From Baekduia soli (lineage in GTDB: Bacteria; Actinomycetota; Thermoleophilia; Solirubrobacterales; Solirubrobacteraceae), in contig NZ_CP042430.1 in the NCBI RefSeq assembly GCF_007970665.1, positions 62,001 to 126,000 of the forward strand: a DNA stretch of 64,000 nucleotides, given 5' to 3'. This document shows positions 1,939 through 44,606 of this stretch, piece after piece. Positions within the stretch are counted from its first letter, which is position 1, and every line of letters starts with the position of its first letter. Position numbers and translations under genes: made by a program. The notes beneath the pieces were generated by a model. It was not told the DNA's origin and ran no database searches. It worked only from the letters and a program-made list of their open reading frames with translations.

Positions 1939-3462
1939 ATGCCCCGTCTTCCGCGTCTGCTGGCGCCGGCTGCGGCCCTCGCCGCCCTCGCCGCGGTCGT
2001 TCCCGCCGCCCAGGCGGCGTCGACCGCCACCTTCCCATCCTCGGGTCCGGCGACCGCGACCGTCCAGATCACCGATCCGGGCCCGGCCTCGCCGACGGTG
2101 CACCTGACCGCGACGGTCGCCGACGCCTCCCACCTGGCCGACACGCGCGTGTTCCTCGGCCAGGACGGAGCGACCCCGAACGTCTCGGTCGGGATCGACG
2201 GCGTGCGCGACGCGCGCTACGACGACACCTACGACGGCGACCTCTCGACCGCGGGCTGCTCGATCTACGACAGCACGCGGACCTATGCCCCCGAGGTGAC
2301 GCACACGGCCGACACGCTGTCGGTCGACCTGCCCAAGGGCGAGATCATCTCCTTCGAGGACACCGAGGTGGCCGTCGGCGACATCGGCACCGACGCGCCC
2401 TGCGACAACGGCGGCGGCTTCCACGGCGTCGCGATGGACTACCCGGGCGTCCGCGAGACCATCGACGGCTTCTCCTGGGACGCGCCCGCCGCCCCCGCCG
2501 TCACGACCGACGGCGGCCGCCGGCAGGTCGCGCTGAGCTTCGACCAGGAGCCCGGTACCCAGTACGACATCTACCGCGTGGTCGACGGCGTGCGCTCGGA
2601 CACCCCGTTCGTTTCCAACGTCCGCGGCGACGGCAGCGACGTCCAGGTCGTCATCGACCAGGACCCCGAGGGCAACGCCCTGGAGCCGGGCACCACCTAC
2701 CGCTTCCAGGTCCAGGCCACGCGGCTGTTCAACGTCTGGCAGGGCTCGGACATGGTTCAGCCGACCAGCCCGTTCAGCGCCGTCGTGTCGGCCACGACCG
2801 CGGCCGTGCAGTCCGTCCGCTTCCTCTCGGCGCCCCCGGCCACCACGAGCGACAGCACCGCCCAGCTGACCTGGGCCATCGACGGCAACGACGCCGGCCA
2901 GGCGCCGTTCTGCGTCCTGGACGACCGCGTCGAGGTGGCCTGCACCACGACGGGCGTCAGCCTCACCGGCCTCGCGCCGGGCGCCCACGCGCTGACCGTG
3001 TACCCCGCCGACGGCGAGCGCTCGTTCACCGCGTCATGGACCGTCGTCGCGCCCGCCCCCGCCCCGGCCGTCGTCCCGGCGCCCGCCGTGGTCCTCCCGC
3101 GGGTCACCTTGCCGGCCGTGCGCTCCAACGACCGTGACGGCGACGGCATCGCGAACACGTGGCTGGTCGGCGGCCGGCTCGCGTCCGCCCCGGCGGCGCC
3201 GAAGGCGGCCGTGACCGCCAAGCGCGTCACGCTGTCGCTGCGGGCCGCGGCCAAGGCCGCCAAGCACGTGCGCATCTACCGGGCCGACGGCACCGGCGGC
3301 TTCAAGCTCGTCGGGACCGTCTCCCCGAAGCGCGGCACGTTCGCCGACACGAAGGTCAAGCCCGGCCACACCTACCGCTACAAGACGGTGGCGGTCAACG
3401 CCAAGGGCCAGCAGGGCCAGGCGTCCAAGGCGGTCACCGCGAAGGTCCGCAAGACCCGCTAG
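1939..3462 (+). CDS. Secreted fibronectin-III-like protein
   Basis: This is a 507-residue exported protein. I chose ATG 1939 because AAGAAGGA lies about 8 bases upstream and because the N-terminus (MPRLPRLLAP then an Ala-rich core ending AQAAS) is a typical Sec signal peptide. The mature part is rich in Thr, Asp and Val and seems to be built of beta-sandwich repeats. The last 90 residues (VRIYRADGTGGFKLVG, then GHTYRYKTVAVNAKGQQG) read as a fibronectin type III domain, and a similar segment (YDIYRVVDG, TTYRFQVQA) lies near residues 210-270. No catalytic motif is visible. Its stop codon TAG 3460-3462 lies inside the target site of the adjacent insertion sequence, which separates the gene from its probable terminator at 4561-4595. 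Confidence 0.75.
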   Translation: MPRLPRLLAPAAALAALAAVVPAAQAASTATFPSSGPATATVQITDPGPASPTVHLTATVADASHLADTRVFLGQDGATPNVSVGIDGVRDARYDDTYDGDLSTAGCSIYDSTRTYAPEVTHTADTLSVDLPKGEIISFEDTEVAVGDIGTDAPCDNGGGFHGVAMDYPGVRETIDGFSWDAPAAPAVTTDGGRRQVALSFDQEPGTQYDIYRVVDGVRSDTPFVSNVRGDGSDVQVVIDQDPEGNALEPGTTYRFQVQATRLFNVWQGSDMVQPTSPFSAVVSATTAAVQSVRFLSAPPATTSDSTAQLTWAIDGNDAGQAPFCVLDDRVEVACTTTGVSLTGLAPGAHALTVYPADGERSFTASWTVVAPAPAPAVVPAPAVVLPRVTLPAVRSNDRDGDGIANTWLVGGRLASAPAAPKAAVTAKRVTLSLRAAAKAAKHVRIYRADGTGGFKLVGTVSPKRGTFADTKVKPGHTYRYKTVAVNAKGQQGQASKAVTAKVRKTR

Positions 3463-3463
3463 G

Positions 3464-4541
3464 TGACGTGCCTCGGGACGTTCCGAACGTCTGAGGGCTG
3501 AAGTTGAGGCATCCGGGCTGAGACAGAGGCTGTGGGTCTTCTCAAGGATCCAACGGCCTCGGAGGTCATCAGCCCGGATGCAGTGCAAGCGTAGGTGGCT
3601 GCCCAGCTGGCAGCGTGTCGAGCTGGTTGATTGGTGTCTTGGCGAGGGACTTCCTCGACGCCAGGCAGCGGCCCGTCGGCGGGTGAGCGTGTCGACGGTG
3701 CAGTACTGGATCGACCGGTACCGCAACGCCTCAGACGCCGAGCGAGCGTCGGGCGCGTGGGCGCAGGATCGACCCTCGACGCCGCATCGCCAGCCGACGC
3801 GGTCCAGCGACGAGCTGCACGACCGTGTCTGCCAGGCGCGGACGCGGACGGGCTGGGGGCCGCGCCTGATCGCCTCCGAGCTCGGCATCGCGCACGCGAC
3901 GGTCTCGCGCTGTCTGAAGCGGCGCGGCATGTCGCGCCAGCCGCCGGCGCCCCGAGAGGCGGTGCAGCGCTTTGAGTGGCCGTGCCCTGGGGCGTTGATC
4001 CAAAACGACGTCAAGCGTTTCGCGCGGTTCTCCTCACCCGGCCATGCCGTCACCGGCAACCGTCACCGCACGGGCGCCGAGAAGCGCCAGCGTGTCGGCT
4101 ACGAGTTCGCCCACAGCGCGATCGACGACCACAGCCGCCTGGCCTACACCGAGCTGCACCGCGACGAGAAGGCCGCCACCGTCATCGGCTTCACCGAGCG
4201 GGCGATCGCGTTCTTCGCTGCGCACGGCATCATCATCGAGCGCTGGCAGACCGACAACGCCTGGACCTACACCCACAACAAGGCGCTGGCCGCCCTGTTT
4301 GACAGCCACGGCATCCGGCATCGCACGATCGCGCCCCGCACGCCGCGCCACAACGGCAAGGTCGAGCGCTACCAGCAGACCCTCAAACGCGAATGGGGCC
4401 TGGGACAGCGCTACCGCTCAAGCGACGCCAGAGCCGCAGCGCTGCCACACTGGCTGCACCACTACAACAACGAGCGGAACCACAGCTCGCTCGGCAACCG
4501 GCCGCCCATCACCCGCGTTCGGAACGACCTGAGGCAGAACA
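3464..4541 (+). mobile_element. IS481-family insertion sequence, complete
   Basis: The element is 1078 bp with one transposase gene. Terminal inverted repeats begin with TG at both ends. The inner 20 bp match 18/20 (left 3470-3489, GCCTCGGGACGTTCCGAACG; right 4516-4535, read on the minus strand as GCCTCAGGTCGTTCCGAACG). The flanks are GCTAGG on the left (3458-3463) and GCTAGC on the right (4542-4547). This agrees with the NCTAGN target and 6-bp duplication known for Bordetella IS481, with one mismatched base. The element sits between the FN3 gene stop codon and the hairpin at 4561-4595. Confidence 0.9.
3509..3581 (+). promoter_or_regulatory. Inverted repeat sequestering the transposase start codon
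   Basis: A perfect 13-bp inverted repeat pairs GCATCCGGGCTGA (3509-3521) with TCAGCCCGGATGC (3569-3581). The transposase ATG (3578-3580) lies inside the 3' arm, and the GGAGG-like stretch at 3561-3565 lies in the loop. In RNA entering from outside the element, this hairpin would hide the start codon. That is a known way for IS elements to avoid expression by read-through transcription. Confidence 0.6.
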
Positions 4542-38312: not shown

Positions 38313-38421
38313 CGCCGGCCGGACCCGCGCCGTTACGTCCGACGAGCCCGCCACGCTGTTCGACCCCACTTCAAGGTTTTCGATGGCGCCGCGGGCCGGC
38401 GGCGAGGAGGAACAGCAGCAC

Positions 38422-41256
38422 ATGGAGACGACACCGCAGACCGCATTGGCGACCCACGTCGAGGCCGGGCGCGCGCTCACGATCGAGCGCTATTTCACGA
38501 CGCCCGGCGTCCACCCGTTCGACGGCGTCGAGTGGGAGCTGCGCACCGCCGCGGTGGGCTCCTTCCGCCAGGACGACGTGGAGTTCCCGCGCTCGTGGTC
38601 GCAGAACTCGACGAACATCGTCGCCCAGAAGTACTTCCGTGGGCAGCTGACCTCGCCCGCGCGCGAGCGCTCCGTCAAGCAGATGATCGGCCGCGTCGCC
38701 GGCACGATCGCCGACTGGGGCCGCCAGCGCGGCTACTTCGCCACCGGCCAGGACGGCGACGCCTTCGAGGACGAGCTCACCTACGTCCTGCTGCACCAGA
38801 TGGCGGCGTTCAACTCGCCCGTCTGGTTCAACGTGGGCTTCGAGGAGCAGCCGCAGTGCTCGGCCTGCTTCATCCTGTCCGTCGAGGACACGATGGAGTC
38901 GATCCTCGACTGGAACACGCGCGAGGGCCGGATCTTCCGCGGCGGCTCGGGCTCGGGCATCAACCTGTCCAACATCCGCGGGTCGATGGAGCCGCTGAGC
39001 AAGGGCGGCACCGCGTCGGGCCCCGTGTCCTTCATGCGCGGCGCCGACTCCTGGGCCGGCACGATCAAGTCGGGGGGCAAGACCCGCCGCGCGGCCAAGA
39101 TGGTCGTCCTCGACGTCGACCACCCCGACATCGTCGAGTTCATCGAGTGCAAGGCCAAGGAGGAGGACAAGGCCGAGGCGCTGCGCAACGCGGGCTTCGA
39201 CATGTCCATCGACGGCGACGGCTTCAAGTCGATCCAGTACCAGAACGCCAACAACTCGGTCCGCGTCACCGACGAGTTCATGAACGCCGTCGAGGCCGAC
39301 GGCGAGTGGCGCACGATCGCCCGCCAGACCGGCAAGCCGATCGGCAAGCCGCTGCGCGCCCGCGACGTCATGCGCAAGATCGCCGAGGCCGCGTGGCGCT
39401 GCGCCGATCCGGGCGTCCAGTACGACACCATCATCAACGAGTGGCACACCTGCCCGGTGTCGGGCCGCATCAACGCGAGCAACCCGTGCTCGGAGTACAT
39501 GCACGTCGACGACTCGGCGTGCAACCTGGCCTCGCTGAACCTCATGAAGTTCCGCCGCCCGGACGGCACGTTCGACGTCGAGCGCTTCGAGCGCGCCGTC
39601 GACGTCGTGTTCCTGGCCCAGGAGATCGTCGTCGGGCCGTCGAGCTATCCGACGGAGGAGATCGGGGCCAACGCCCGCGCCTTCCGCCAGCTCGGCATGG
39701 GCTATGCCAACCTCGGCGCCTACCTCATGGCCAACGGCATGCCCTACGACTCCGAGCAGGGCCGGGCGACCGCCGCCGCGATCACCGCGCTCATGACGGG
39801 CCGTGCCTACCTGCAGTCGGCCAAGGTCGCCGCCGCGATCGGCCCGTACGAGCGCTACGCCGAGAACCGCGACGCGCACAACGCCGTCATGCGGATGCAC
39901 CGCGATGCCACCGCCCACATCCCCGTGGGCGTCGGCCGCGACGACAGCCTGCTGGCAGCCGCGCGCGAGGTGTGGGACGAGGCCGTCGAGCTCGGGGAGC
40001 TGCACGGCTACCGCAACGCGCAGGCGACGGTGCTGGCTCCCACCGGCACGATCTCCTTCCTCATGGACTGCGACACGACGGGCGTCGAGCCCGACTTCTC
40101 GCTGGTCAAGTACAAGGAGCTCGTCGGCGGCGGCTCGATGACGATCGTCAACCAGACCGTCGGCCTGGCCCTGCAGACGCTGGGCTACACGCCGACCCAG
40201 GTCGACGCGATCGTCGCCCACATCGACCAGTACGGCACGATCGTGGAGGCGCCCGGCGTGCTCGACGAGCACCTCGAGGTCTTCGACGTCGCCGTCGGAT
40301 CGCGCGCCATCAGCCATATGGGCCACATCAAGATGATGGGCGCCGTCCAGCCCTTCATCTCTGGTGCGATCTCCAAGACGGTCAACCTGCCCTCGACGGC
40401 CACGGTGGAGGACATCGTCGACGCCTACACGCAGGCCTGGCACCTGGGCGTGAAGGCGCTGGCCATCTACCGTGACGGGTCGAAGACCGCGCAGGCGCTG
40501 CGCACCGACGCCCAGCAGGAGGAGGCCGCCGTGCCGTCGCTGGACTCCGAGGAGTTCGCCCAGGCCGTCAAGGACGAAGTCGCCAAGCAGCTCGACTCGA
40601 TCGGGCCGCGCCGCAACAAGATGCCGCGTGAGCGCCAGTCGATCACGCACAAGTTCAACATCGGCGGCCACGAGGGCTACATCACGGCCGGCATGTACGA
40701 GGACGGCACGGTCGGCGAGATCTTCATCACCGACGTCGGCAAGGAGGGCTCGACCCTCCGCGGCATGATGAACTCGTTCGCCACGGCGATCTCCATCGCG
40801 CTGCAGTACGGCGTGCCGCTCGAGACGCTCGTGCAGAAGTTCGCCTACATGCGCTTCGAGCCGGAGGGGATCACGCAGAACCCGGAGATCCCGTTCGCGA
40901 AGTCGATGCCCGACTACATCATGCGCTGGCTGGCGTCCCGCTTCCTGGACGCCGACATCCAGGAGGAGCTCGGGATCCTGACCACCGAGGTGCGGGCCAA
41001 GAAGGCCGCCCAGGACGCGATCACGTCGATCTCCTCCGACACCGCCGGGCCGCAGGCCGTCCCGACGAACGGGGGCGGCAAGGGCGGCGCCGCGCAGGCG
41101 CCGACGGCCAAGCTGACCGACACGCCGCCGGTACGCCCGGCGCGCATGATCGGCCTCGAGCTCGGCCCGGCCTGCCAGCAGTGCGGCGGCATGATGCAGC
41201 GCACGGGCTCGTGCTACACGTGCTCGTCCTGCGGCAACAACACCGGCTGCGGCTGA
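38422..41256 (+). CDS. nrdJ: Adenosylcobalamin-dependent (class II) ribonucleotide reductase
   Basis: About 944 residues from ATG 38422 (AGGAGG at 38405-38410); ATG 38383 is an alternative in-frame start. It reduces ribonucleotides using a B12-generated thiyl radical. Marks of the family: FNSPVWFNVG, CSACFILSVEDTMESI, the active-site NPCSEYMHVDDSACNLASLN near residue 352, and LAPTGTISFLMDCDTTG. A C-terminal Cys-rich tail (CQQCGGMMQRTGSCYTC) carries the thiols that re-reduce the active site. It is the only ribonucleotide reductase in the window and implies a B12 requirement for DNA precursors. Confidence 0.95.
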   Translation: METTPQTALATHVEAGRALTIERYFTTPGVHPFDGVEWELRTAAVGSFRQDDVEFPRSWSQNSTNIVAQKYFRGQLTSPARERSVKQMIGRVAGTIADWGRQRGYFATGQDGDAFEDELTYVLLHQMAAFNSPVWFNVGFEEQPQCSACFILSVEDTMESILDWNTREGRIFRGGSGSGINLSNIRGSMEPLSKGGTASGPVSFMRGADSWAGTIKSGGKTRRAAKMVVLDVDHPDIVEFIECKAKEEDKAEALRNAGFDMSIDGDGFKSIQYQNANNSVRVTDEFMNAVEADGEWRTIARQTGKPIGKPLRARDVMRKIAEAAWRCADPGVQYDTIINEWHTCPVSGRINASNPCSEYMHVDDSACNLASLNLMKFRRPDGTFDVERFERAVDVVFLAQEIVVGPSSYPTEEIGANARAFRQLGMGYANLGAYLMANGMPYDSEQGRATAAAITALMTGRAYLQSAKVAAAIGPYERYAENRDAHNAVMRMHRDATAHIPVGVGRDDSLLAAAREVWDEAVELGELHGYRNAQATVLAPTGTISFLMDCDTTGVEPDFSLVKYKELVGGGSMTIVNQTVGLALQTLGYTPTQVDAIVAHIDQYGTIVEAPGVLDEHLEVFDVAVGSRAISHMGHIKMMGAVQPFISGAISKTVNLPSTATVEDIVDAYTQAWHLGVKALAIYRDGSKTAQALRTDAQQEEAAVPSLDSEEFAQAVKDEVAKQLDSIGPRRNKMPRERQSITHKFNIGGHEGYITAGMYEDGTVGEIFITDVGKEGSTLRGMMNSFATAISIALQYGVPLETLVQKFAYMRFEPEGITQNPEIPFAKSMPDYIMRWLASRFLDADIQEELGILTTEVRAKKAAQDAITSISSDTAGPQAVPTNGGGKGGAAQAPTAKLTDTPPVRPARMIGLELGPACQQCGGMMQRTGSCYTCSSCGNNTGCG

Positions 41257-41352: not shown

Positions 41353-41628
41353 TCACGGGAGCTCCACCTGGCCGGCCCGGCGCCGGCCGAGCAGCCGGCC
41401 GCGGGCGCGGTGCAGGTGGGGCATGAGGCCGTAGATGACGATGGGCACGGCGATGGTGGCCAGGACGAACGTGCGGGGGACGGCCGAGAGGGTGCCGAGC
41501 CAGTCGCCGAGCAGCAGGTTGAGGACGGTGAGCGTGGGGAAGACGCACAGCCAGATCATGGCCGCGAGCTGGTGGCGGCTCGGCGGCGCCGGCGGGGTCG
41601 TGGTCTCGGCGGCGGTGGTCTTGGGCAT
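41353..41628 (-). CDS. Small two-helix membrane protein
   Basis: A 91-residue protein starting at minus-strand ATG 41628 behind GGAG. A short polar N-terminus is followed by two helices: MIWLCVFPTLTVLNLLLGDW (about 25-44) and FVLATIAVPIVIYGLMPHLH (about 52-71), then a basic tail. This resembles small DUF2798-type membrane proteins. It lies 23 bp behind the flavoprotein gene, in the same operon under the 20-bp operator at 42614. Confidence 0.7.
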   Translation of the reverse strand: MPKTTAAETTTPPAPPSRHQLAAMIWLCVFPTLTVLNLLLGDWLGTLSAVPRTFVLATIAVPIVIYGLMPHLHRARGRLLGRRRAGQVELP

Positions 41629-41651: not shown

Positions 41652-42575
41652 TCAGGCGGCGCCGACCAGCCCCGCGGTGGCGGCGACCTCGTCGGCGACG
41701 ATCTGGTTGTTGATGGCGATGGCCGCCGCCGACGCGTCTCCGGCGGCGGTGATGACCTGGGCGCGAGGGTTGGCGGCGTTGCCGGCCGCCCACACCCCGA
41801 GCACGCTGGTGCGCCCGTCGGCGTCGGCGAGCACGAGCCCGTCGCTCGACAGCGCGCAGCCGAGGGCGGCGGCGACGCTGTCGGGGCGGGCACGCAGCCG
41901 CGGTCGCATGAACACCGCCGCTCGCCGGACGGTGCGTCCGTCGTCGAGCTGGACGGCCTGGAGGCGGTCGTCGGCGATGACGAGCCGCTGCACGGCCCCG
42001 TCGACGACGGCAACGCCGCGCGCGGCGAGCGTCGCGCGCTCGTCGTCGGCGAGCGCGTGGGTGTTGGTGAAGTAGGTGACGTCGTCGCTCCACTGACGCA
42101 GCAGGTGGGCCTGCTGTATCGAGCCGGGGCCGGTGGCGAGCACGCCGATGGGCTGGTCTGCGACCTCGTAGCCGTGGCAGTAGGGGCAGTGCAGGAAGTC
42201 GCGTCCCCACCGCTCGCGCACGCCGGGGATGTCGGGCAGCACGTCGGTGGCGCCGCCGGCCAGCAGCACGTGCCGGGCGGCGACGGTGCCGGTGCTCTCG
42301 GTCTGCAGCTCGAAGCCGGCGGCAGCATCGAGCACGCGGTCCTCGACGAGCCGCACGCCGTAGCTGGCGACCTCCACGCGACCGCTTTTCAGCAGCTCGG
42401 AGGGCGGCATGCCGTCGCGCGAAAGGTAGCCCTGCATGTGGGCGGCCGGGGCGTTGCGCGGCTCGCCGGCGTCGATCACGACGACGTCGCGCCGAGCCCG
42501 ACCGAGGACCAGCGCCGCGCTGAGGCCGGCGGCGCCGCCGCCGACGATGGCCACGTCATAGGTCTTGGTCTGCAT
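41652..42575 (-). CDS. Thioredoxin-reductase-like FAD/NAD(P) oxidoreductase
   Basis: A 307-residue class II flavin disulfide reductase. The FAD site is VAIVGGGAAGLSAALVLGRA at the N-terminus. The redox-active pair is in HCPYCHGYE near residue 133 (CxxC). VLATGPG marks the NAD(P)H domain and VWAAGNAANPRAQV the second FAD contact. Homologues with CPYC and no thioredoxin partner are often called TrxR-like or ferredoxin-like flavoproteins. Divergent from the XRE-cupin regulator with a shared operator. Confidence 0.88.
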   Translation of the reverse strand: MQTKTYDVAIVGGGAAGLSAALVLGRARRDVVVIDAGEPRNAPAAHMQGYLSRDGMPPSELLKSGRVEVASYGVRLVEDRVLDAAAGFELQTESTGTVAARHVLLAGGATDVLPDIPGVRERWGRDFLHCPYCHGYEVADQPIGVLATGPGSIQQAHLLRQWSDDVTYFTNTHALADDERATLAARGVAVVDGAVQRLVIADDRLQAVQLDDGRTVRRAAVFMRPRLRARPDSVAAALGCALSSDGLVLADADGRTSVLGVWAAGNAANPRAQVITAAGDASAAAIAINNQIVADEVAATAGLVGAA

Positions 42576-42613
42576 GCGTCCAGGGTGCGCGCAGGCCGCC
42601 GCGATGGGAAGCG

Positions 42614-42633
42614 TTGTTGCCGTTTCCGGGAAC
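42614..42633. promoter_or_regulatory. XRE-cupin operator, copy 1
   Basis: TTGTTGCCGTTTCCGGGAAC lies 21 bp before the XRE-cupin start and 39 bp from the divergent flavoprotein start. The same 20 bases occur inverted at 43268-43287. Confidence 0.75.
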
Positions 42634-42654
42634 CGCCGGTAGCGTCGGCGTGCC

Positions 42655-43245
42655 ATGCCCGACGAGGCCGCGATCCCTGACGTCCTGGCCGACGTCGGTC
42701 CTCGTCTCCGGCGGTTGCGCGAGCGCCGTGGCGTGACGCTCACCGCGCTGGCGGCCAGGACCGGGATCTCCAAGAGCACGCTGTCGCGGCTGGAGAGCGG
42801 GCAGCGCAAGCCCAGCCTGGAGCTGCTGCTGCCGCTCGCCCAGGCCCATCACCTGCCGCTGGACGAGCTGGTGGGCGCGCCGCGCATCGGCGACCCCAGG
42901 GTGCGGATGCAGCCGAAGACCCGCAACGGCCGGTTGGTCTATCCGCTCACGGGCGCCAACAGCCCCATGGCCGTGTGGAAGGTCGTGATCCCGCCCCAGT
43001 CCGAACGCAGGCTCCGCACGCACGCAGGACACGAGTGGCTCTACGTGCTGGCGGGCGAGCTGCAGCTCATCCTCGGGGAGCACGACCTGATCCTGAGCGC
43101 GGGCGAGGTCGCGGAGTTCGACACCCGGGTCCCGCACTGGTTCGGGCCCACCGGCGAGGAGCCGGTGGAGATCCTCAGCATCCACGGCAGCCACGGCCGG
43201 CGCATGCACGTGCGCGCCGCACCGCGCGCCGGGCAGCCCGCCTGA
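42655..43245 (+). CDS. XRE-family regulator with cupin sensor domain
   Basis: A 196-residue protein. The HTH_3 domain is residues 18-70 (LRERRGVTLTALAARTGISK, STLSRLESGQRKPSLELLL). A linker follows, and the C-terminal cupin is residues 105-180 (HAGHEWLYVLAGELQLILGE). Such fusions sense a small ligand in the cupin and usually act locally. Two identical 20-bp sites flank its gene, so it probably controls the divergent flavoprotein operon, itself and the downstream DUF4386 gene. Confidence 0.9.
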   Translation: MPDEAAIPDVLADVGPRLRRLRERRGVTLTALAARTGISKSTLSRLESGQRKPSLELLLPLAQAHHLPLDELVGAPRIGDPRVRMQPKTRNGRLVYPLTGANSPMAVWKVVIPPQSERRLRTHAGHEWLYVLAGELQLILGEHDLILSAGEVAEFDTRVPHWFGPTGEEPVEILSIHGSHGRRMHVRAAPRAGQPA

Positions 43246-43267
43246 GCGACGATCCGGGATCCACGCC

Positions 43268-43287
43268 GTTCCCGGAAACGGCAACAA
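43268..43287. promoter_or_regulatory. XRE-cupin operator, copy 2 (inverted)
   Basis: GTTCCCGGAAACGGCAACAA is the exact reverse complement of 42614-42633. It lies 73 bp before the DUF4386 start. Confidence 0.75.
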
Positions 43288-43359: not shown

Positions 43360-44091
43360 ATGACCACCTCGGACCGCTCGACCGCCCGCCTCGTGGGCTG
43401 GCTGTTCATCGGCACGTTCGTCTTCTCGATCCCGGGCCTGCTGCTCTACGGGCCGCTGCTCGATCATCCCGACTACGTTCTCGGCGCCGGCCACGACACC
43501 CGGATCACCGCCGGCGCGTTCCTGGAGATCCTCACGGCGATCTGCAACATCGGCACCGCCGTCGCGCTGTATCCGCTGGCCCGCCGCCTCAGCCCCCGCC
43601 TCGCCATCGGCTACGTGGCGGTCCGGATCCTCGAGTCGACCGTGATCGTCGCCGGCATCGTCAGCGTCCTCTCCGTCCTGACGCTGCGCGAGCAGTCCGC
43701 CGGCGCTGACCCCGAGACCTTCACCGTCGCCGGGCAGGCGCTGGTGGCCTTCCACGACTGGACGTTCCTGCTCGGCCCCGGCTTCTGCGCCGCCATCGGC
43801 AACGGCCTGCTGCTCGGCTTCCTCATGTCCAGGACGGGACTCCTGCCGCAGCGCCTCGCCGCGTTCGGGATCCTCGCCGGCGGCTTCGCGTTCATCGCCG
43901 CAACCGGCGCGCTGTTCGACGTCTACGACCGACAGTCAGGACCGCAGCTCCTGCTCACCGTCCCCGAGATGATCTGGGAGGCCACCTTCGGCATCTACCT
44001 GATCGTCAGGGGGTTCGCCCCACCGGCCGTGCGCGAGCGCCGGGCCGGCAGGGAGCGGGGGGTCTCGGCACCGGTCGCGGCGGCGGGCTGA
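43360..44091 (+). CDS. DUF4386 family membrane protein
   Basis: A 243-residue protein with about six hydrophobic helices. The opening STARLVGWLFIGTFVFSIPG and the middle ILTAICNIGTAVALYPLARR (then RRLSPRLAIGYVAVRILEST) are typical of DUF4386. GGACCAACG precedes the start. Function unknown; the operator upstream places it in the XRE-cupin regulon. Confidence 0.85.
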   Translation: MTTSDRSTARLVGWLFIGTFVFSIPGLLLYGPLLDHPDYVLGAGHDTRITAGAFLEILTAICNIGTAVALYPLARRLSPRLAIGYVAVRILESTVIVAGIVSVLSVLTLREQSAGADPETFTVAGQALVAFHDWTFLLGPGFCAAIGNGLLLGFLMSRTGLLPQRLAAFGILAGGFAFIAATGALFDVYDRQSGPQLLLTVPEMIWEATFGIYLIVRGFAPPAVRERRAGRERGVSAPVAAAG

Positions 44092-44198: not shown

Positions 44199-44606
44199 AT
44201 GAGCGATCTCACGCAGTCCCCTACGACCCTCACGAACATCGGCGTCGTCATGTTCACCGTCGCCGACCAGGACGCCGCACTGGCGTTCTACACCGGGAAG
44301 CTCGGCTTCGAGGTGCGCAGCGACAGCCGCTTCGGCGAGCACGACGAGATGCGCTGGCTCGAGGTCGCGCCGCCCGGCTCCACCGCCCGCCTGTCCCTGA
44401 ACCCGCCGATGGCCGACGAGCCCGGCGGGAGCGCGATCGGCGTCGAGACCACCGACGTGCTCGGCGAGCACGCCCGGCTCAGCGCGATCGGCGGCATCGA
44501 CCTCGACCCCGAGCCGATGCGCATGCCCGGCGCCCCGCTGATGTTCATGGTCCGCGACCCCGACGGCAACACCGTCGTCGTGGTGGAGGCGCCTCCGGCG
44601 GCCTAG
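44199..44606 (+). CDS. VOC-superfamily (glyoxalase-like) protein
   Basis: A 135-residue protein with two beta-alpha-beta-beta-beta halves: NIGVVMFTVADQDAALAFYT and GKLGFEVRSDSR, then FMVRDPDGNTVVVVE, which supplies the late metal-ligand Glu. The first-half ligand expected near VMFTV is hydrophobic rather than His, so the metal site may be incomplete. ATG 44199 follows GGAGGG very closely; ATG 44166 is an alternative. It could be a small-molecule binding or detoxifying protein; no specific substrate is indicated. Confidence 0.82.
   Translation: MSDLTQSPTTLTNIGVVMFTVADQDAALAFYTGKLGFEVRSDSRFGEHDEMRWLEVAPPGSTARLSLNPPMADEPGGSAIGVETTDVLGEHARLSAIGGIDLDPEPMRMPGAPLMFMVRDPDGNTVVVVEAPPAA

What the first reader, a model, noticed from the sequence alone, without database searches (positions are those of the whole stretch)
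42614..43287. Identical 20-bp operators in inverted orientation define a local XRE-cupin regulon
TTGTTGCCGTTTCCGGGAAC at 42614-42633 recurs as its exact reverse complement at 43268-43287. Together they cover three transcripts: the TrxR-like flavoprotein plus small membrane protein, the regulator, and DUF4386. This links proteins of unknown role into one redox-responsive unit.
Basis: partly seen in the sequence, partly recalled or inferred. Interest (0 to 1): 0.58.

Follow-up and report, generated by a model that had tools for sequence, protein, structure and literature searches.

The report
Repressor switch for dithiol detoxification genes
Two matching DNA sites flank a gene for a regulator protein and are very probably its own docking sites, belonging to a switch found across many soil actinobacteria that probably turns on enzymes disarming toxic sulfur compounds such as holomycin and gliotoxin.

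Summary
The 20-mer is at 42614-42633 (+) and 43268-43287 (-), its only copies in the 5.21-Mb genome even with 3 mismatches. It is an operator. Upstream of 81 orthologues of the XRE-cupin regulator the same block (about GRCAA-N6-TTGCYG-N4-YGSRAA) is conserved: 22.8 bits, against 7.6-7.8 in five shuffled controls. A model of it finds exactly the two window sites in the home genome. It overlaps the regulator's promoter, so autorepression plus repression of the neighbours is the best reading.

One label needs correcting: the 'TrxR-like' protein scores 81 bits against a cut-off of 343, lacks the NADPH motif, and is closest to the dithiol oxidase HlmI. In other actinobacteria the operator marks HlmI-like oxidases, SAM methyltransferases, fusions of the two, and MFS pumps: 16 of 20 unlinked sites in 27 genomes, and 24 of 29 in an independent set. 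This points to inducible defence against dithiol/disulfide toxins. The regulator has no conserved cysteine but keeps a 2-His-1-Glu cupin triad, so a thiol switch is unlikely. DUF4386 is a lineage-specific recruit. Binding and ligand are untested.

The parts
42614..42633 (+). operator 1 (core 20-mer; further half-site GGGAA at 42606-42610), overlapping the -35 of the regulator promoter
   Evidence: exact match, conserved block upstream of 81 regulator orthologues
43268..43287 (-). operator 2, upstream of DUF4386; same orientation towards DUF4386 as operator 1 towards the flavoprotein
   Evidence: scores 25.7 bits; a downstream site in the same position occurs in 2 of 3 close relatives
42617..42645 (+). 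inferred regulator promoter TTGCCG-N17-TAGCGT, its -35 inside operator 1
   Evidence: the same TTGCCG-N17-TA[GC][CG]GT spacing is read in L084, L085 and L086. Below the threshold of the consensus scan
42655..43245 (+). XRE-cupin regulator, 196 aa (HTH_31/HTH_3 at 14-72, Cupin_2 at 110-176); no Cys; H123, E127, H161 = 2-His-1-Glu triad
41652..42575 (-). HlmI/GliT-like FAD dithiol oxidase (CPYC motif), 307 aa, not a thioredoxin reductase
41353..41628 (-). small membrane protein, 91 aa, 23 bp after the oxidase gene, probably the same operon; linked in several relatives
   Evidence: no family match; homologues beside the oxidase in L007, L010, L011, L013, L015, L016, L025, L053, L084, L085
43360..44091 (+). 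DUF4386 membrane protein, 243 aa, predicted bundle of long helices
   Evidence: orthologue (69%) in the same place with its operator in G026

Best explanation
The two 20-mers are binding sites (operators) of the XRE-cupin protein encoded between them. A dimer, or two dimers on half-sites one helical turn apart, covers the -35 region of the regulator's own promoter and the divergent oxidase promoter, and a second copy covers the DUF4386 promoter. The result is a local, autorepressed unit: HlmI-like dithiol oxidase + small membrane protein / regulator / DUF4386. A small molecule or metal state sensed by the cupin barrel releases the repressor. From the genes that carry this operator across actinobacteria (HlmI/GliT-like dithiol oxidases, SAM methyltransferases incl. 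TPMT-like ones, fusions of the two, MFS pumps), the inducer is most likely a reactive dithiol/disulfide natural product (holomycin, thiolutin or gliotoxin type), and the unit closes, caps or exports it. Shown by computation: sites, conservation, uniqueness, target classes. Inferred: binding, repression (about 0.85), dithiol-toxin role (about 0.5), metal in the cupin (about 0.5), role of DUF4386 (unknown).
For: Uniqueness: only 2 copies in 5.21 Mb at up to 3 mismatches, and only these 2 sites by model up to E 10. Conservation: motif search over 81 orthologues gives 22.8 bits, against 7.6-7.8 in 5 dinucleotide-shuffled sets. 77 of 81 loci have a site of 16 bits or more within 230 nt upstream; elsewhere in those loci only 4 do, 3 of them the downstream site of the window's own lineage (window, G089, G026), and 0 turn up in shuffled loci. 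The operator stays while the promoter moves: in Streptomyces/Saccharopolyspora-type loci it lies inside TTGACA...TGCAAT, in the window's group it overlaps the -35 (read by eye). Targets: in 81 orthologous loci the divergent neighbour is an HlmI-like oxidase in 44 and a SAM methyltransferase in 16. Of 20 unlinked operator sites in 27 genomes, 16 lie beside an HlmI-like oxidase (11), methyltransferase (3) or MFS pump (2). In 29 operator loci from Streptomycetaceae, none with an operator used to build the model, 24 lie beside such a gene and 27 beside such a gene or the regulator. Oxidase identity: nearest solved structure 4ntd (E 9.6e-97), then DepH and GliT; 80.8 bits against the TrxR cut-off of 343.45, while the genome's true TrxB scores 359; the NADPH motif HRRDEFR of TrxB is FTNTHALADDE in this protein. 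Literature: XRE-cupin proteins are local repressors of neighbours, with palindromic sites (PMC7901475, passages); the dithiol oxidase DnoP protects against gliotoxin and related toxins (PMC11317636, passages); loss of hlmI leads to S-methylated dithiols, i.e. oxidation and S-methylation are alternative protections (PMC3826145, passages).
Against: No binding, expression or toxicity data. In 21 of 81 orthologous loci the divergent neighbour is neither oxidase nor methyltransferase by this test (L003 is cut by its contig end). 2 of 20 unlinked sites and 2 of 29 Streptomycetaceae sites have no recognisable target, and 2 of the 20 are decayed copies. The methyltransferases match generic domains, TPMT only in part; S-methylation is not shown. 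Of three close relatives, G073 has no downstream site, G089 has it before a GNAT gene, and only G026 has it before DUF4386. The consensus scan found no sigma-70 promoter here.
Confidence: 0.72

Rival explanations
1. Same operator and repressor, but the physiological role is not toxin defence: the oxidase and methyltransferases process an endogenous thiol or a catabolic metabolite sensed by the cupin.
For: Characterised XRE-cupin regulators mostly sense metabolites and control metabolism (PMC7901475). The XRE regulator DbuR likewise represses a divergent catabolic operon (PMC12724383, abstract). 21 of 81 orthologous loci have other neighbours.
Against: The recurring target classes are HlmI/GliT-type oxidases, methyltransferases and MFS pumps, the set that fits dithiol self-protection.
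Confidence: 0.3
2. The motif is a conserved alternative (ECF-type) sigma-factor promoter rather than a repressor operator.
For: In the window both copies read GGAAAC in the direction of the oxidase and DUF4386, and no sigma-70 consensus promoter was found.
Against: In many orthologous loci the block lies in the spacer of a TTGACA...TGCAAT promoter, and its distance to the promoter differs between groups. It follows the regulator gene and its paralogues.
Confidence: 0.05
3. The inverted copies are ends of a mobile or invertible element or a repeat family.
For: Inverted orientation, 634 bp apart, flanking one gene.
Against: Only 2 copies in the genome. No downstream copy of 16 bits or more in 78 of 81 orthologous loci. 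No transposase or recombinase is inside; the interval is just the regulator gene.
Confidence: 0.02
4. The protein activates the oxidase and DUF4386 rather than repressing them.
For: Position alone cannot exclude it; both target genes have the site in the same orientation.
Against: Operator 1 overlaps the inferred promoter of the regulator, and the sites end 38 and 72 nt before the target start codons. The studied Pseudomonas XRE-cupin proteins are all described as inhibitors (PMC7901475).
Confidence: 0.1

Closest known systems
XRE-cupin local repressors of Pseudomonas (ErfA, PsdR, PauR; PMC7901475)
   Same: HTH + cupin architecture, few targets, adjacent genes, palindromic site, autoregulation in some
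   Different: Different targets; here three half-sites in GGCAA-N6-TTGCC-N5/6-GGCAA spacing; conserved HppE-like metal triad; dithiol oxidase/methyltransferase/efflux regulon. Ligand unknown
HlmI (4ntd), DepH (4nte) and GliT (4ntc) dithiol oxidases
   Same: Closest solved relatives by sequence that have a known function, CxxC motif; no NADPH motif in the window protein
   Different: Those enzymes were described from biosynthetic clusters for dithiol products (PMC11317636). The window's immediate neighbours are not biosynthetic genes; this was not searched further
DnoP (PA4170) of Pseudomonas aeruginosa (PMC11317636)
   Same: Dithiol oxidase in a non-producer, inducible, protective against gliotoxin and related toxins
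   Different: DnoP is in the DepH group and is induced by zinc depletion; the window's enzyme is nearest HlmI and has a dedicated XRE-cupin neighbour
HppE, hydroxypropylphosphonate epoxidase (HTH + cupin enzyme)
   Same: Among the best structural matches of the regulator model; metal triad His138-Glu142-His180 (PMC7916636, passage) matches H123-E127-H161 in order and His-x3-Glu spacing
   Different: HppE is an enzyme; the regulator sits beside operators and is about 20% identical

Membership tests
XRE-cupin transcription factor | N-terminal Cro/C1-type HTH plus C-terminal Cupin_2 | tested here: met
   HTH_31 62 bits (cut-off 27), Cupin_2 57.2 bits (cut-off 27.2); fold
XRE-cupin transcription factor | Conserved palindromic site at its own and neighbouring promoters | tested here: met
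XRE-cupin transcription factor | Represses neighbouring genes | not testable with these tools
   needs EMSA, footprint and deletion mutant
Thioredoxin-disulfide reductase (TIGR01292) | Score over the curated cut-off | tested here: not met
   81 bits against 343.45; the genome's TrxB scores 359
Thioredoxin-disulfide reductase (TIGR01292) | NADPH-binding HRRxxxR motif (motif name recalled; present in the genome's own TrxB) | tested here: not met
   HRRDEFR in TrxB, FTNTHALADDE in the window protein
HlmI/GliT/DepH dithiol oxidase | Sequence relationship and CxxC motif | tested here: met
   4ntd 9.6e-97, DepH 5e-46, GliT 6e-25; HCPYCHGYE shared with 4ntd and DepH
HlmI/GliT/DepH dithiol oxidase | Oxidises small-molecule dithiols | not testable with these tools
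   needs enzyme assay
Metal cupin with 2-His-1-carboxylate triad (HppE type) | His, Glu, His at the triad positions | tested here: met
   H123 81/81, E127 77/81 (His in 4), H161 81/81; HppE triad from PMC7916636
Metal cupin with 2-His-1-carboxylate triad (HppE type) | Bound metal | not testable with these tools
   needs purified protein
Cysteine-based redox sensor | Conserved cysteine(s) | tested here: not met
   60 of 81 orthologues have no Cys, the window's among them
Repeat family / mobile element | Further copies in the genome | tested here: not met
DUF4386 (PF14329) | Score over gathering cut-off | tested here: met
   139.3 bits against 27.6

The most novel reading that the evidence does not exclude
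An actinobacteria-wide inducible defence against dithiol/disulfide natural products from competitors: a cysteine-free metal-cupin repressor senses the dithiol directly, for example by its ligating or stripping the cupin metal, and releases a dispersed operator-defined regulon of dithiol oxidase, S-methyltransferase, efflux pump and, in this lineage, DUF4386 as a new membrane component.
Probability: 0.3. Interest if true: 0.75.

Novelty: new member of a known kind. Interest (0 to 1): 0.56.

Why it matters
Dithiol oxidases are known mainly from producers of holomycin, romidepsin and gliotoxin, plus DnoP in one pathogen (PMC11317636). A conserved operator that ties this enzyme class to methyltransferases and pumps over many actinobacteria turns many 'thioredoxin reductase-like' annotations into a testable hypothesis about defence against sulfur toxins. 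It also gives a ready reporter sequence for finding the inducer, and places DUF4386, for which no paper was found by name in the held library, in a functional context.

Tried and rejected
Repeat family or mobile element: rejected on copy number and phylogenetic pattern. Thioredoxin reductase: rejected on score and NADPH motif. Thiol-switch redox sensing: rejected for lack of conserved cysteine. MshB (mycothiol synthesis) as a regulon member: the operator in front of mshB in L167 (TIGR03445, 316.9 bits) first looked like a strong functional clue. The locus also holds an N-terminal scrap of the oxidase and a C-terminal scrap of the regulator, so it is a rearranged remnant and I do not count it. 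L181 is likewise a decayed regulator copy (read by eye). Consensus promoter scan: no hit. DUF4386 fold: no PDB match at E 0.001 or better; this is absence of a match, not a new fold. Operator beside other DUF4386 genes: none in 28 of the 30 loci scanned, these 30 being the loci returned, not all matches. Papers: searches, 72 of the held open-access library gave no paper on an XRE-cupin regulator of a dithiol oxidase among the listed titles; subscription papers are not held.

Rows dropped before counts: orthologues under 58% identity were left out of the 81. The operator model used 59 of 79 distinct sites, chosen by hand, mostly to thin near-duplicates. The 20 unlinked sites are those with E up to 0.0245 that are not at the known regulator gene or directly beside it; the weaker rows, up to E 1, were not typed, except L175 and L176 in G026. 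In one search, 30 of 61 genomes had a match at E up to 0.01; one best locus per genome was typed, and the query genome G159 was left out.

Full report
Observation. With up to 3 mismatches there are 2 copies in the window (0 in 100 shuffles) and the same 2 in the whole 5,212,251-base single-contig genome, with none for the reversed control. The similarity extends to 24 of 25 bases.

Anatomy. From left to right: small membrane protein (41353-41628, -), FAD flavoprotein (41652-42575, -), operator 1 (42614-42633), regulator (42655-43245, +), operator 2 (43268-43287), DUF4386 (43360-44091, +), then a glyoxalase-like gene (44199-44606, +). Although inverted on the chromosome, both operators have the same orientation relative to the gene they precede: GTTCCCGGAAACGGCAACAA reads towards the flavoprotein and towards DUF4386. 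The regulator's promoter can be read as TTGCCG-N17-TAGCGT with the -35 inside operator 1, and the same arrangement is seen in L084, L085 and L086. This is inference; the consensus scan did not reach threshold.

The sites are operators. The search for related loci gave 80 loci with regulator orthologues, and the genome search gave three close ones (78-84%) among 150 relatives. Upstream of 81 orthologues (58% or more, window included) an unsupervised motif search gives a 20-bp block of 22.8 bits, against 7.6-7.8 in five dinucleotide-shuffled sets. The ungapped alignment of 59 sites reads GACAA-N5-GTTGCCGTTTCTGCAA; A10, T18, T19, G20, C21, G29 and A32 are invariant. Read by eye, there are three half-sites, GGCAA-N6-TTGCC-N5/6-GGCAA, about one helical turn apart. 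In one group of loci the block lies in the spacer of a TTGACA...TGCAAT promoter; in the window's group it overlaps the -35. The operator therefore stays conserved while the promoter shifts. 77 of 81 loci have a site of 16 bits or more within 230 nt upstream. In the rest of the 650 kb of those loci there are only four, three of them the downstream site of the window, G089 and G026, and shuffled loci have none.

Regulon in other genomes. A sequence-only model of the operator finds exactly the two window sites in the home genome up to E 10. Eleven lie beside an HlmI-like oxidase (five fused to a methyltransferase: L156, L158, L159, L162, L173; one followed by one: L160), three beside a SAM methyltransferase, two beside an MFS pump related to chloramphenicol exporters, two at decayed copies of the system, and two beside nothing recognisable. 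In an independent draw of 61 Streptomycetaceae genomes, 30 had a site at E up to 0.01. Of the 29 best loci outside the query genome, none with an operator used in training, 24 lie beside an oxidase, methyltransferase or MFS gene, 21 beside the regulator or a paralogue, and 2 beside neither. In the 81 orthologous loci the divergent neighbour is the oxidase in 44, a methyltransferase in 16, and neither in 21.

What the flavoprotein is. Its nearest solved relative is 4ntd (E 9.6e-97); DepH and GliT are also close. The PDB entry calls 4ntd 'Thioredoxin reductase'; that it is HlmI is recalled, and it fits PMC11317636, which says HlmI of S. clavuligerus has a solved structure. The window protein scores 81 bits for thioredoxin reductase against a cut-off of 343, while the genome has a true TrxB at 359. 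Aligned with that TrxB it keeps the CxxC but has FTNTHALADDE in place of HRRDEFR. It should be called a dithiol-oxidase-like protein.

What the unit probably does. PMC11317636 (passages and one section read) shows that the dithiol oxidase DnoP protects P. aeruginosa from gliotoxin and related toxins. PMC3826145 (passages) reports that loss of hlmI raises holomycin sensitivity and leads to S-methylated intermediates. Oxidation, S-methylation and export are thus a coherent set, and they are the classes that carry this operator. TPMT-like matches in some of the methyltransferases fit, but are weak. I put the dithiol-toxin role at about 0.5.

How it may sense. The window's regulator has no cysteine and 60 of 81 orthologues have none, so a thiol switch is unlikely. 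H123 and H161 are invariant and E127 is present in 77 of 81. The predicted fold (mean pLDDT 84) matches 1y9q and the HTH-cupin enzyme HppE, whose metal is held by His138, Glu142 and His180 (PMC7916636, one passage). In whole-chain matches the rmsd is above 10, so the two domains are differently placed; cupin-only matches are at about 2 to 4. A metal-bearing cupin that dithiols, themselves metal chelators, could ligate or strip is attractive but untested.

DUF4386. In G026 the oxidase is absent from this locus but regulator, operator 2 and DUF4386 (69% identical) remain, which argues that the pairing is functional. In G089 the downstream operator precedes a GNAT gene instead, and G073 has no downstream operator. 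Of 30 DUF4386 loci scanned in the family only the window's and G026's carry the operator. DUF4386 is therefore a lineage-specific recruit. Its role is unknown, and no paper in the held library names it.

Verdict. A real operator pair of a local XRE-cupin regulon; the general kind is known (PMC7901475, passages). The target set and its spread over actinobacteria make a defence role against dithiol toxins directly testable.

Noticed in passing
L167 (G169:C1:6922100-6927100), about 2198-3645: Operator in front of an mshB-like gene, flanked by scraps of the oxidase (77 aa) and of the regulator (33 aa): a rearranged copy in which another gene seems to have taken over the regulator's promoter.
   Followed up: partly
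L181 (G155:C145:79300-84300), about 2413-2560: Operator followed directly by the C-terminal end of a regulator gene: an internally deleted copy whose operator is still intact.
   Followed up: partly
L156, L158, L159, L162, L173: HlmI-like oxidase fused to a TPMT/TehB-like SAM methyltransferase (525-539 aa), divergent from a regulator paralogue with the same operator.
   Followed up: partly
L237 (Streptomycetaceae), 1573-2307: A gene whose start reads like a PIG-L-type deacetylase lies directly upstream of a regulator orthologue with operator; identified by eye only.
   Followed up: no
window 41353-41628: Small membrane protein with no Pfam or NCBIfam match that travels with the oxidase in the window's group of loci; its pattern recalls a membrane tail of some ABM-domain proteins (recalled, not tested).
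   Followed up: partly
window 38383-41256: Large ORF that looks like a vitamin B12-dependent ribonucleotide reductase next to the unit (by eye, no family search).
   Followed up: no
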